Below, piece after piece: positions 4,666 through 20,815 of a stretch of DNA of 64,000 nt; the stretch's first letter is position 1; each line of letters begins with the position of its first letter. The notes below the pieces were generated by a model. It was not told the DNA's origin, made no database searches, and saw only the letters and a list, made by a program, of their open reading frames with translations. Origin of the DNA: Pelosinus sp. UFO1 (GTDB lineage Bacteria > Bacillota > Negativicutes > DSM-13327). The stretch is taken from the NCBI RefSeq assembly GCF_000725345.1, contig NZ_CP008852.1, positions 4,849,001 to 4,913,000 on the forward strand. The letters are read 5' to 3'. Made by a program: the position numbers and the translations under genes.

Positions 4666-4743
4666 TTGACAAAATTAAACAGTATGGAATATAATGATTG
4701 ATATTGATAATCGTTATCAATATCAATCATTATATTCCATACT
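4666..4743 (+). promoter_or_regulatory. Promoter overlapping 63-bp perfect palindrome with Fur-like box
   Basis: A perfect 30-bp inverted repeat (4681-4710 and 4714-4743) flanks a 3-nt centre. Its core TGATAATCGTTATCA (4703-4717) differs at one position from the 7-1-7 Fur consensus TGATAATNATTATCA. A TTGACA (4666-4671) lies 18 bp before TATAAT (4690-4695), which is inside the left arm, so a bound Fur-type repressor would cover the -10 and start site. The next gene is the chemoreceptor at 5102, behind the riboswitch. An alternative is that the palindrome is a small mobile-element remnant. Confidence 0.6.
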
Positions 4744-4795: not shown

Positions 4796-4845
4796 TAATA
4801 ATTTATTAGTCTTATAATTATGATATTGTAAATGTAGAAAATTAC

Positions 4846-4932
4846 ATATTTGGCAAACTTACTGAAAGGTAGGGACGCAAAGCTATGGGTCTAAGGACAT
4901 TTGGTCTATGATTGCCAGGTTTCCCTTGAAAA
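4846..4932 (+). promoter_or_regulatory. c-di-GMP-I (GEMM) riboswitch
   Basis: The stretch has the conserved landmarks of the class I c-di-GMP aptamer in order: GGCAAAC, a stem capped by GAAA, then GGGACGCAAAGC, a second stem region with GGTCTAAGG..., and the closing ATTGCCAGGTTTCCC. The GAAA tetraloop and its receptor, needed for folding of GEMM-I aptamers, both appear. An intrinsic terminator directly follows (4944-4967), so ligand binding would switch transcription of the downstream chemoreceptor and perhaps the two enzymes behind it. Confidence 0.9.
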
Positions 4933-4943
4933 AGGTATTGAAA

Positions 4944-4967
4944 CCCAGGCATTCGTCTGGGAATTTT
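4944..4967 (+). terminator. Expression-platform terminator of riboswitch
   Basis: CCCAGGC (4944-4950) pairs with GTCTGGG (4955-4961) around ATTC, then AATTTTT. Its position right after the aptamer suggests it is the regulated terminator; which state is favoured by ligand cannot be read directly. Confidence 0.75.
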
Positions 4968-5101
4968 TGATTTCTTAATGAAATTATGCATGTAGATTAC
5001 GGTTGAAGTATTCCATAACTAGCAACTTCGCAGGAATTATAAATGCATGAGATCATTTACAAATAAATTAGTATTTAGTTTTTAATAAAGGAGAATAAGA
5101 T

Positions 5102-7069
5102 ATGTCTATTAAAGCAAAAACCGTTACGTTGTTAGTGATTGCCCTTCTTATGACAGGGCTTATCGTCGGAGGGTCAGGTATGTATGTTCTCTATGGAAGA
5201 ACATTGAATAACAATCAAGTGGCAATGAATGGCCAGGCTTCTCAGCTGGCGGGTGAGACAAGTGAATTATTTGCTTCATTTTCAAGAAGCGGTAAATATT
5301 ATAGTGAAGATCTTGACCTTAAATCTGGAGATGCTTCCCGTGTACAAGATAAGATCAATGCATATTTCGCAGCCACATGGGGAGTTGATCGTCTGGTATT
5401 TATCAATTCTGCGGGCGCACGATTTGCCATAGCTCCCTACGATGCAAAAACAATAGGGGGAAGTGTGGCTGACCGGGATTTTTTTAAAGACACGATGAAG
5501 GATCAAAAGTCACACATTAGCGATGTAATAGTGAACAGGGCATCAGGAATACCCTCAGTCATAGTTACACAACCTGTCAAAACACAGGACGGTAAAATGG
5601 CGGGATTTGTTGCTCAGTCAATCTCCTTAGAAACCCTACAAAATTTTCTCGAGCAAGTCAAAGTGGGTGAAACTGGAGTGGCAGGTATTGTTGCTCAAGA
5701 TGGATCAATACTAGCTCACACGAATAAAGATTTAATAAAAGAACAAATAAAAGTTCCTGAAAATATGTTACATTCTTTACTCGAGAATTCGGGGAAATTA
5801 ATCCCTTACCCCGATTCTATCGGTCGAGACTCTTTGGCCTTAGCTGTACCAATTAAGAATACCCCCTGGGTGGTAATTGTTAGTATGCCTAAGAGTGAAA
5901 TTATCAGTGACTTTTATGCTAGCCTTACTACTATGGTGATTTCTCTTTTAGTGGCTCTTCTTGTTGTCGGGTTAGTTGCATGGATATTCCTTATTAGACT
6001 ATTACGTCCAATTGAAGAGATTTCTAGGCAAGTTGCGAAGATTGGTGACGGGGATCTCTCTGTAGCTATTACTTCTTCATCTAATGACGAGATTGGTATT
6101 TTGGCGAAGGCCCTATCAACGTCTATTGGGAATTTTAGACAAATGATTGTGAAAGTTCAGGAGGCAAGTGAAATAGTATCGGCTTCCTCTGAAGAGCTTA
6201 CAGCAAGCACAGAACAATTATCTCAGGCGGCAAATCAAGTATCAACTGCAATAACAGGTGTGACTGACGGGACAACACATCAAATGCAGGCTGTAGATAA
6301 CACAATGCATATCGTTGAACAAATGTCTGCGGGTCTTCAACAAATCGCTGCTAATACTGGCAGCGCTTCTGCTACAGCCGAGAAAACATCAAATACTGCT
6401 CAAGAAGGTGGTAAGGCTGTCCAGAAAGTTACGAGTCAGATGACGAATATTGAAACTTCAGTGAATAATTCAGCACAAGTAGTAGCTAAACTTGGTGAAC
6501 GTTCTAAGGAAATCGGGCAAATCGTTGATACTATTGCGGGAATAGCCGGTCAAACGAATCTATTAGCCTTAAACGCTGCTATTGAAGCTGCTCGTGCTGG
6601 TGAACAAGGCCGTGGTTTTGCTGTGGTAGCTGAGGAGGTTAGAAAACTCGCGGAACAGTCTCAAGGAGCTGCGAAAGAGATTGCTGCTTTGATTGGAGAA
6701 ATTCAGGCAGATACGACTAAGGCTGTACTAGCAATGAATGATGGAACTGATGAGGTAAGAAAAGGTACAGAAGTTGCCATAGCCGCGGGACAATCTTTTA
6801 ACGAGATTGCTTTACTTATTGAAGAAGAGTCGGATCAAATCCGTGAAATTTCTGCAGCCATTGAGCAGATGGCTAACGGTAGCCAACAAATCGTATCTTC
6901 AGTAAAGGAAATTACGAAGATTAGTAAGGATGCGACAGGTCAAGCACAAACTGTATTAGCAGCTACAGAAGAACAAACTGCATCTATTCAGGAGATTGCT
7001 TCTTCCAGCACGGATCTGTCTCAAATGGCAGGAAATTTGCAGGACATTGTATCCAAGTTTAAGATTTAG
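5102..7069 (+). CDS. Methyl-accepting chemotaxis protein with Cache domain
   Basis: An inner-membrane chemoreceptor of 655 residues that passes periplasmic ligand signals to CheA/CheW. Order of parts: transmembrane segment about 8-29, a double-Cache-type sensor about 35-275 (with [11 protein letters not shown] and [12 protein letters not shown]), second transmembrane segment about 281-303, HAMP about 304-356, and a cytoplasmic signalling coiled coil. The hairpin tip contains [20 protein letters not shown] near residues 481-500. The start has AAGGAG upstream. It lies 135 nt after a c-di-GMP riboswitch terminator, so its expression should respond to c-di-GMP. Two enzyme genes follow at 49 and 67 nt, probably in the same transcript. 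Confidence 0.95.
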
Positions 7070-8142: not shown

Positions 8143-9156
8143 ATGTCGAATGTTGGATTACGCATTTTTACACATAGTAATCGACCGCCCAAGGCTTTAA
8201 TTGAAGGATTTGCAGGAATACCAGTAGCTAATATCGCAGATAATATGAACCGAATGTCTTGTATGGATGCTAAAATTCGTCCAATCAATGACATGCCATT
8301 ACTTGGACCGGCTTTTACTGTTAAGGCACGTCCTGGCGATAATCTTATGCTGCATAGAGCACTTGATCTTGCAAAACCCGGCGATATTGTGGTAGTAGAT
8401 GCGCAAGGCGATTTGACAAACGCTATTATGGGAGAATTGATGGCTTTGTGGGCAATGCAAAGAGGTATTGGTGGTTTTATAATTGATGGGGCGATTCGTG
8501 ATATAGGGGCGTTAAAAAAAATGGGCTTACCTATCTATGCTGCAGGAGTAACTCCCGCAGGTCCCTATAAAGACGGACCTGGTGAAATTAATGTCCCTGT
8601 CGCTTGTGGCGGCGTAGTTGTAAACCCTGGTGATATCTTGGTCGGCGACGAAGATGGTATTGTTGTTATTAACCCGCGTGATGCCGCAGAGTTATTAGAA
8701 AAATCCAGGGCTAAATCCCGAGCTGAAATGCAAACATTGGAAGAGATAGCAACTATGTCATGGGATCGCACTTGGGTCGAAAAGGCTCTTGCGGAGCGGG
8801 GAGCAGTAGTCGAGAATGATAATCGAAGTTTTCCTCGTGCCGATGTCAATGAGCCTGTGAAAATTTTGCTCGACGATTCTGACCATCCTATGGATGCTAT
8901 TGCGACTAATATCAGTATAGAAGGGATATTGTTGCAATCAGAATCTCATTTGGAGCTTAATTCCTTACTTCGGCTGAATTTATCAAATGGGCTGGGGAAC
9001 ATGAATGTCGTAGCAAAAGTTATTTGGCAACAGAACAATAACTTTGGTTGTAATTTTGTGGATCTGTCTGAAGAGTTACAAGCGGTATTGGATCATGTGG
9101 TATATTTTCATTTGCGGCAAAACTTAGATCAACTGAATTTACTAAGAATCAGTTAA
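8143..9156 (+). CDS. RraA-family enzyme fused to C-terminal PilZ domain
   Basis: Residues 1 to about 220 are an RraA-like fold, the family of 4-hydroxy-4-methyl-2-oxoglutarate/oxaloacetate-cleaving aldolases and RNase E inhibitors. The substrate Arg and metal Asp motif DGAIRDIGAL is present near 115, and the glycine-rich PAGPYKDGPGE loop near 142. Residues about 227-330 look like a PilZ domain: FPRADVNEPVKI at its start and NISIEG near 255, matching the (D/N)xSxxG part. The usual second Arg of RxxxR is replaced (RADVN), so c-di-GMP binding may be weakened or lost. RraA proteins are normally 160-230 residues, so the extension is unusual. The uninterrupted frame argues against an artefact. A strong terminator follows. 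Confidence 0.85.
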   Translation: MSNVGLRIFTHSNRPPKALIEGFAGIPVANIADNMNRMSCMDAKIRPINDMPLLGPAFTVKARPGDNLMLHRALDLAKPGDIVVVDAQGDLTNAIMGELMALWAMQRGIGGFIIDGAIRDIGALKKMGLPIYAAGVTPAGPYKDGPGEINVPVACGGVVVNPGDILVGDEDGIVVINPRDAAELLEKSRAKSRAEMQTLEEIATMSWDRTWVEKALAERGAVVENDNRSFPRADVNEPVKILLDDSDHPMDAIATNISIEGILLQSESHLELNSLLRLNLSNGLGNMNVVAKVIWQQNNNFGCNFVDLSEELQAVLDHVVYFHLRQNLDQLNLLRIS

Positions 9157-9204
9157 CCCGAAGAAGCTGTTATCCAGTCGCACCCAACTCATAAGTTTAG
9201 ATAA

Positions 9205-9256
9205 AATGTACCCTGTGGTAGATAAGTAAAAATCTATCATGAGGTACATTTTTTTA
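9205..9256 (+). terminator. Terminator of the MCP-dehydrogenase-RraA cluster
   Basis: A long hairpin with outer AATGTACC/GGTACATT and inner TGGTAGAT/ATCTATCA arms is followed by seven T residues. Confidence 0.85.
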
Positions 9257-20553: not shown

Positions 20554-20815
20554 AAAAAGCCCCTATCGATGCTTTTGAAAGCATCGATAGGGGCGACGAT
20601 ACGCGGTACCACCCTACATTAGACTCATAACGCCTGTTAATCAACAGACTTCCGAATAACGCTCGGCAGCGCTTTTGCTTACCAATACCTGCAGGTATTA
20701 TTTCACCAAAAGAGTTCCTAGGTGAGAAGACTGCAACAATGTTACTCTGGCTCACACCACCCGCCAGCTCTCTGAAGTACTTATTGATTGCATCGCTCCT
20801 AGTCATTACTTTTTA
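20554..20815 (-). promoter_or_regulatory. T-box leader of liv-ilvE operon (probably leucine)
   Basis: On the minus strand the leader has the stem I AGAGAG element (near 20770), the GGGTGGTGTGAGCC distal loop, the T-box AGGGTGGTACCGCG (20602-20615) and a terminator with a 16-bp stem (CCCCTATCGATGCTTT arm, 20554-20595) followed by a T tract. Uncharged tRNA would stabilise the antiterminator. The likely specifier is CTC in CTTCTCACC, a leucine codon, read by position relative to ACC; this reading is tentative. A frame of 109 codons covering the leader is an artefact. Confidence 0.9.

What the first reader, a model, noticed from the sequence alone, without database searches (positions are those of the whole stretch)
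8143..9156. RraA enzyme fused to a PilZ domain, in a cluster led by a c-di-GMP riboswitch
Seen: one open frame joins an intact RraA domain (DGAIRD site) to a C-terminal domain with PilZ-like features (FPRADVNEPVKI, NISIEG). The same-strand cluster starts behind a c-di-GMP-I aptamer with terminator and also holds a chemoreceptor and a D-2-hydroxyacid dehydrogenase. Known: PilZ binds c-di-GMP, and RraA proteins are aldolase/decarboxylases or RNase E regulators. Inference: c-di-GMP may act twice, on transcription and on the enzyme, tying 2-oxo/2-hydroxyacid metabolism to motility. The second Arg of the PilZ RxxxR motif is missing, so the domain may be a degenerate protein-interaction version.
Basis: partly seen in the sequence, partly recalled or inferred. 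Interest (0 to 1): 0.78.

Follow-up and report, generated by a model that had tools for sequence, protein, structure and literature searches.

The report
RraA-PilZ enzyme under c-di-GMP control
A Pelosinus bacterium makes one protein that joins an intact organic-acid-cleaving enzyme (RraA/aldolase type) to an intact sensor domain for the signal molecule c-di-GMP, in an operon that also starts with a c-di-GMP-sensing RNA switch and a chemoreceptor; the arrangement is conserved across several bacterial families and suggests that this signal controls an enzyme's production and perhaps also its activity.

Summary
The frame at 8143-9156 encodes an RraA-like domain (Pfam E 3e-51) fused to a PilZ domain (E 1e-12). 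The aldolase residues (E98, R119, D120, E195) are intact here. The fusion occurs in six families of the class (Negativicutes). In seven of ten cases the cluster has a c-di-GMP-I riboswitch and a chemoreceptor; in two relatives a riboswitch lies directly before the fusion gene. Neighbouring genes encode 2-hydroxyacid dehydrogenases or BASS-type transporters. The likeliest reading is a c-di-GMP-binding class II pyruvate aldolase/oxaloacetate-type decarboxylase, transcriptionally attenuated (probably switched OFF) by c-di-GMP and tuned by the same signal through PilZ. Allosteric control is inferred, not shown. Against it: PilZ is lost in some intact clusters, and a Pelosinus side branch lost catalytic residues but kept PilZ, which suits a scaffold/signalling role there. 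I found no published RraA-PilZ fusion in the held library. New variant of a known kind.

The parts
4666..4695 (+). Promoter-like site, TTGACA-18-TATAAT (12 of 12), conserved in relative G008
   Evidence: alignment
4842..4927 (+). c-di-GMP-I (GEMM-I) riboswitch aptamer
   Evidence: Rfam RF01051, 72.1 bits, full length
4944..4969 (+). Intrinsic terminator of the riboswitch (CCCAGGC-AUUC-GUCUGGG then U-run); its 5' arm with flank (GAAACCCAGGC) can also pair with the aptamer's 3' strand GCCAGGUUUC
5102..7069 (+). Methyl-accepting chemotaxis receptor, dCache_1-HAMP-MCPsignal, 655 aa
7119..8075 (+). D-isomer-specific 2-hydroxyacid dehydrogenase, 318 aa
8143..9156 (+). RraA-PilZ fusion protein, 337 aa
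8227..8667 (+). RraA-like (class II pyruvate aldolase-like) domain, residues 29-175
   Evidence: PF03737
8434..8436 (+). E98, aligned with D102 of 3noj (acid of the D-X20-R-D motif)
8497..8502 (+). R119-D120, aligned with catalytic R123 and metal-binding D124 of 3noj
   Evidence: residue roles from PMC5065237
8725..8727 (+). E195, aligned with metal-binding E199 of 3noj; invariant in all 20 sequences aligned
8821..9105 (+). PilZ domain, residues 227-321
   Evidence: PF07238; fold match to c-di-GMP-bound PilZ structures
8824..8838 (+). RxxxR motif, R228-S-F-P-R232
8908..8925 (+). NxSxxG motif, N256-I-S-I-E-G261
9203..9256 (+). Long hairpin with T-run, likely operon terminator
   Evidence: sequence; fold

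Best explanation
RraA-PilZ is a c-di-GMP-binding form of the metal-dependent class II pyruvate aldolase / oxaloacetate-type decarboxylase family. It belongs to a small 'sense, import and break down an organic acid' operon headed by a chemoreceptor. Step 1 (shown as anatomy): the operon is transcribed through a c-di-GMP-I riboswitch with an intrinsic terminator. Step 2 (inferred, about 0.7): c-di-GMP stabilises the aptamer and leaves the terminator free to form, so high c-di-GMP (sessile state) turns the operon off. Step 3 (inferred from intact residues, about 0.75): the RraA domain cleaves or decarboxylates a 2-oxo acid, most plausibly an oxaloacetate-like C4 acid, giving pyruvate. Step 4 (inferred from the complete motif, about 0.85): the PilZ domain binds c-di-GMP. 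Step 5 (inferred, about 0.45): binding reorders the RxxxR loop, which begins 33 residues after the metal ligand E195 on the preceding helix, and so changes activity or oligomer state of protein already made.
For: Both domains match by sequence and fold. Catalytic and metal residues are intact: E98, R119, D120, K143, E195 (roles from PMC5065237). RxxxR and NxSxxG are intact in 10 of 10 full-length fusions across six families. The riboswitch - MCP - RraA-PilZ order recurs in distant families. In G318 a second aptamer lies between the MCP and the fusion gene, and in G295 an aptamer lies directly before it. Seven of ten fusion loci have a riboswitch, against 0 of 7 unfused outgroup RraA loci. Partner genes fit organic acids: D-2-hydroxyacid dehydrogenase here, malate/lactate dehydrogenase Ldh_2 in Sporomusa malonica, BASS/SBF transporters in several. 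The closest unfused outgroup clusters pair RraA with an aminotransferase and a Na+:dicarboxylate symporter, plus aspartate ammonia-lyase in one of the two. Both domains are under purifying selection between the window and G008 (dN/dS 0.14 and 0.27). All 12 cluster riboswitches are followed by a terminator that does not overlap the aptamer; with the aptamer enforced, terminator pairs are at 0.99-1.0.
Against: No binding or activity data. PilZ is absent (G300, G299, G302, Lucifera, S. ovata) or truncated (S. malonica) in clusters with the same MCP-RraA(-transporter) order, so it is dispensable there. A Pelosinus side branch (G005, G006, G009) has E98K in all three and R119C/D120N in two, but keeps the fold and PilZ motif. 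Domain orientation is uncertain (pTM 0.59). Free RNA also favours the terminator at equilibrium, and antiterminator complementarity was no better than shuffles in most cases.
Confidence: 0.5

Rival explanations
1. Scaffold reading: the RraA domain serves mainly as a trimer/hexamer platform that presents several PilZ domains, and the protein signals c-di-GMP to a partner such as the co-encoded chemoreceptor; catalysis is secondary or lost.
For: In the Pelosinus side branch (G005, G006, G009) the fusion gene is always next to an MCP gene, active-site residues are changed (E98K in all three, R119C/D120N in two, loop glycine changed), the PilZ motif is kept, and the RraA part still evolves under constraint (dN/dS 0.22-0.27). 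An MCP neighbours nearly every fusion.
Against: The window protein and the other six riboswitch-linked fusions keep every catalytic residue tested. Their neighbours are dehydrogenases and organic-acid transporters. In G302 and Lucifera the unfused RraA stays in the same cluster without PilZ.
Confidence: 0.25
2. The fused PilZ does not bind c-di-GMP and is a protein-interaction or stability domain.
For: Some PilZ domains are known not to bind c-di-GMP (own knowledge; no tool result here supports it).
Against: RxxxR and NxSxxG are complete here and in all ten full-length fusions; the fold matches c-di-GMP-bound PilZ structures with Z up to 14.6.
Confidence: 0.1
3. RNA-decay reading: the protein is a c-di-GMP-responsive regulator of RNase E/G, like E. 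coli RraA.
For: The genome encodes an RNase E/G family protein, and E. coli RraA has the same fold.
Against: The protein is closer to the aldolase (3noj, E 7e-36, Z 23.4) than to E. coli RraA (E 5e-12, Z 15.1), keeps the aldolase motif, and lies among organic-acid and chemotaxis genes.
Confidence: 0.05

Closest known systems
HMG/CHA aldolase / oxaloacetate decarboxylase (3noj, Pseudomonas putida; PF03737)
   Same: Fold, R119-D120, E195, K143, H71 and the loop glycine; Z 23.4 over 219 residues
   Different: E instead of D at position 98; extra C-terminal PilZ domain; different gene neighbourhood; substrate unknown
YcgR / MotI-type PilZ flagellar brakes
   Same: C-terminal PilZ with RxxxR and NxSxxG
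   Different: N-terminal domain is an RraA-like enzyme, not PilZNR; this genome has a separate 228-aa PilZNR-PilZ protein
BcsA/Alg44-type PilZ-regulated polysaccharide machines
   Same: PilZ domain linked to a catalytic protein (BcsA); c-di-GMP switches activity
   Different: The catalytic partner here is a soluble carbon-metabolism enzyme, not a membrane glycosyltransferase; activation not shown
c-di-GMP-I (GEMM-I) riboswitches controlling chemotaxis genes
   Same: Aptamer at 72 bits with adjacent terminator, upstream of a chemoreceptor; several of the genome's 11 aptamers precede MCP-like or CheY/CheA-like genes (the latter read from sequence by eye)
   Different: The operon also encodes a PilZ protein, so the same ligand can act on RNA and on product

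Membership tests
PilZ domain (PF07238) | Profile match over the curated cut-off | tested here: met
   48.3 bits against 22.5
PilZ domain (PF07238) | RxxxR and (D/N)xSxxG c-di-GMP motif | tested here: met
   R228..R232 and N256..G261; kept in 10 of 10 full-length fusions
PilZ domain (PF07238) | PilZ beta-barrel fold | tested here: met
   AlphaFold model, pLDDT about 90 there; Z 14.6 to 5y6g
PilZ domain (PF07238) | c-di-GMP binding | not testable with these tools
   needs a binding assay
RraA-like / HMG-CHA aldolase (PF03737) | Profile match and fold | tested here: met
   174 bits against 24.5; Z 23.4 to 3noj
RraA-like / HMG-CHA aldolase (PF03737) | Catalytic Arg and metal-binding Asp (R123, D124) and Glu (E199) | tested here: met
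   R119, D120, E195 (roles in PMC5065237)
RraA-like / HMG-CHA aldolase (PF03737) | Acid before X20-R-D (D102 in 3noj) | tested here: inconclusive
   Glu (E98) in place of Asp; acidic, so a metal site is plausible, not proven
RraA-like / HMG-CHA aldolase (PF03737) | Aldolase or oxaloacetate decarboxylase activity | not testable with these tools
   needs an enzyme assay
LigK/HMG-CHA aldolase proper (NCBIfam equivalogs TIGR02798, NF006731) | Score over the equivalog cut-off | tested here: not met
   143 of 304.5 bits and 165 of 179 bits; it meets only subfamily NF004850, 298 over 231
E. coli-type RraA (RNase E regulator) | Score over the equivalog cut-off | tested here: not met
   NF006875 89 of 136 bits; TIGR02998 45 of 241 bits
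c-di-GMP-I riboswitch (RF01051) | Covariance-model score over gathering, full length | tested here: met
   72.1 against 35, positions 1-87 of 87
c-di-GMP-I riboswitch (RF01051) | Ligand-dependent control of the downstream operon | not testable with these tools
   terminator present; polarity inferred only
YcgR/MotI flagellar brake | N-terminal PilZNR domain | tested here: not met
   N-terminus is RraA; the genome's PilZNR protein is elsewhere

The most novel reading that the evidence does not exclude
c-di-GMP directly gates a carbon-metabolism enzyme through a fused PilZ domain while also gating its transcription through a riboswitch in the same operon, so one second messenger switches chemoreceptor and organic-acid breakdown together on two time scales.
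Probability: 0.4. Interest if true: 0.75.

Novelty: new variant of a known kind. Interest (0 to 1): 0.6.

Why it matters
Known c-di-GMP effectors mostly act on motility, polysaccharide export or transcription. A PilZ domain fused to a soluble aldolase/decarboxylase would be a direct handle from c-di-GMP onto carbon metabolism, comparable to c-di-AMP control of pyruvate carboxylase (own knowledge). The architecture is conserved over six families yet simple enough for a one-protein assay. The relatives form a natural series for testing what PilZ adds: fused and active-site-intact, fused and catalytically altered, PilZ truncated, PilZ lost.

Tried and rejected
(1) 'Second Arg missing': rejected, RSFPR is a full RxxxR. 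(2) Fusion by frame error: rejected, ten genomes carry it. (3) 'Only two PilZ proteins in the genome': rejected as a miss by the search's first look; a 228-aa PilZNR-PilZ protein exists at 2.68 Mb, so counts from that tool are lower bounds. (4) Statistical proof of an antiterminator: complementarity between the aptamer 3' strand and the terminator 5' arm against shuffled arms gave p 0.03-0.96, so the OFF polarity rests on geometry, not on that test. A PilZ-plus-linker alignment had no stretch conserved enough to scan with. (6) The receptor's ligand: its dCache domain matches amino-acid and other receptors weakly (PctC E 4e-8, KinD E 4e-4), no call made. (8) Literature: no relevant paper holds both RraA and PilZ, and the lists for PilZ + aldolase and c-di-GMP + oxaloacetate decarboxylase showed no title about such a fusion; most subscription papers are not held.

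Full report
OBSERVATION. The frame 8143-9156 encodes 337 aa with an RraA-like domain (PF03737, residues 29-175, E 2.9e-51) and a PilZ domain (PF07238, residues 227-321, E 1.3e-12). NCBIfam places the first part in subfamily PRK06201 (298 bits, cut-off 231); it falls short of the LigK/HMG-CHA aldolase equivalogs and of E. coli-type RraA. An AlphaFold model (pLDDT 82, pTM 0.59) matches the HMG/CHA aldolase 3noj (Z 23.4, 219 residues) and c-di-GMP-bound PilZ domains (5y6g Z 14.6). The c-di-GMP-I aptamer is at 4842-4927. A perfect promoter-like site at 4666-4695 and a terminator hairpin at 4944-4961 flank it. No terminator-like site lies between the three genes; a long hairpin with a T-run closes the unit at about 9203-9256.

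CORRECTION. It is not: R228-S-F-P-R232 is followed by N256-I-S-I-E-G261, and both motifs are present in all ten full-length fusions.

ACTIVE SITE. Alignment to 3noj puts R119-D120 on R123-D124 and E195 on E199. Arg-123 is essential and Asp-124 and Glu-199 bind the metal (PMC5065237). E98 stands where 3noj has D102. H71 and K143 match H75 and K147. So the window's RraA domain looks catalytically competent. From memory (abstract of Mazurkewich et al. 2014, cited in PMC5065237): RraA-like proteins with the metal motif have aldolase and oxaloacetate decarboxylase activity, E. coli RraA does not.

DISTRIBUTION. The window lies in a 5.1-Mb Pelosinus genome (same genus as G006, whose contig is Pelosinus propionicus DSM 13327). 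Among 380 genomes of the class, full-length fusions occur in ten: the window, G008 (91% identity), G318 (77), G096 (76), G295 (70), G078 (69), G092 (Propionispora, 69) and three other Pelosinus (64, 60, 59), from six families. No fusion turned up in a sample of about 400 genomes of the phylum other than the window's own.

GENE ORDER. Riboswitch - MCP - dehydrogenase - RraA-PilZ is found in the window and G008. Riboswitch - MCP - RraA-PilZ is found in G096, G078 and G092. G318 has riboswitch - MCP - riboswitch - RraA-PilZ. G295 has riboswitch - RraA-PilZ - riboswitch - second RraA-like - DUF441 - MCP. A BASS/SBF transporter gene follows in G318 and S. malonica by Pfam and in G096 by NCBIfam, and look-alike proteins follow in several others. 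In S. malonica the PilZ is cut after about 35 residues and a malate/L-lactate dehydrogenase gene follows. G302 and Lucifera keep the riboswitch, MCP and an unfused RraA; G300, G299 and S. ovata keep MCP - RraA without riboswitch or PilZ. Seven unfused outgroup RraA loci have no such riboswitch. The nearest unfused outgroups, G001 and G289, pair RraA with an aminotransferase and a Na+:dicarboxylate symporter, G001 also with aspartate ammonia-lyase. That points to an oxaloacetate-like substrate; this is inference from neighbourhood.

EVOLUTION. In a tree of RraA domains the fused rows and the three unfused rows from the same cluster form one clade (94/88). The label needs 3 changes against 10.3 in shuffles, which fits one fusion and later losses, though the order is not proven. 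In the Pelosinus side branch (G005, G006, G009: no riboswitch, fusion gene followed by a gene for an MCP of about 699 aa) E98 is Lys in all three and R119-D120 is Cys-Asn in two, with the PilZ motif intact. The RraA part is still constrained (dN/dS 0.22-0.27). G004 has only a 97-aa remnant without RraA and without RxxxR.

RIBOSWITCH POLARITY. In all 12 cluster riboswitches a terminator starts after the aptamer and does not overlap it. With the aptamer enforced in the window, terminator pairs have probability 0.99-1.0. The aptamer's 3' strand GCCAGGUUUC can pair with GAAACCCAGGC, which holds the terminator's 5' arm. This is the layout of an OFF switch. The antiterminator is weak at equilibrium (0.04-0.15) and its complementarity is mostly no better than shuffles, so I put OFF at about 0.7. 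At least three other aptamers in the genome (L002, L005, L008) are followed by AACCTGGCA, complementary to their own aptamer 3' end, the opposite layout (read by eye).

JUDGEMENT. Shown: intact fusion, intact motifs, conserved synteny, riboswitch with terminator. Inferred: enzyme activity, c-di-GMP binding, OFF polarity, allosteric coupling. The geometry makes coupling plausible: the metal ligand E195 sits on the helix (178-203) that leads through a short linker to the RxxxR loop at 228-232. The genome also has a YcgR/MotI-type protein and a glycosyltransferase with a PilZ domain, so this PilZ is an additional effector and not the flagellar brake. I found no report of an RraA-PilZ fusion in the held literature.

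Noticed in passing
window 4681-4743: Near-perfect 63-base inverted repeat (30-base arms, 3-base loop) overlapping the -10 of the operon promoter; its centre TGATAATCGTTATCA resembles a Fur box. In G008 the repeat is imperfect.
   Followed up: partly
L046 9021-10031, L047 5149-6159, L045 8197-9207, L048 9340-9633: Pelosinus side branch of RraA-PilZ with altered active sites (E98K; R119C/D120N in two) next to a 699-aa MCP; in G004 the RraA part is deleted and only a PilZ remnant remains.
   Followed up: yes
L078 6228-8514 (minus strand): Two c-di-GMP-I riboswitches within 1.5 kb, one before RraA-PilZ and one before a second, distant RraA-like gene, DUF441 and an MCP.
   Followed up: partly
L009, L006, L002/L051: Other c-di-GMP-I riboswitches of this genome precede CheY/CheA-like genes, a protein with RTX-like repeats, and a cluster that includes a PilZ-containing glycosyltransferase.
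   Followed up: partly
L053 3860-8635 (minus strand): Unfused RraA in a cluster with aspartate ammonia-lyase, an aminotransferase, a Na+:dicarboxylate symporter and MCP fragments; a hint to an oxaloacetate-like substrate.
   Followed up: partly
window 20586-20815 (minus strand): T-box leader (Rfam RF00230, 93.7 bits, just over gathering).
   Followed up: no
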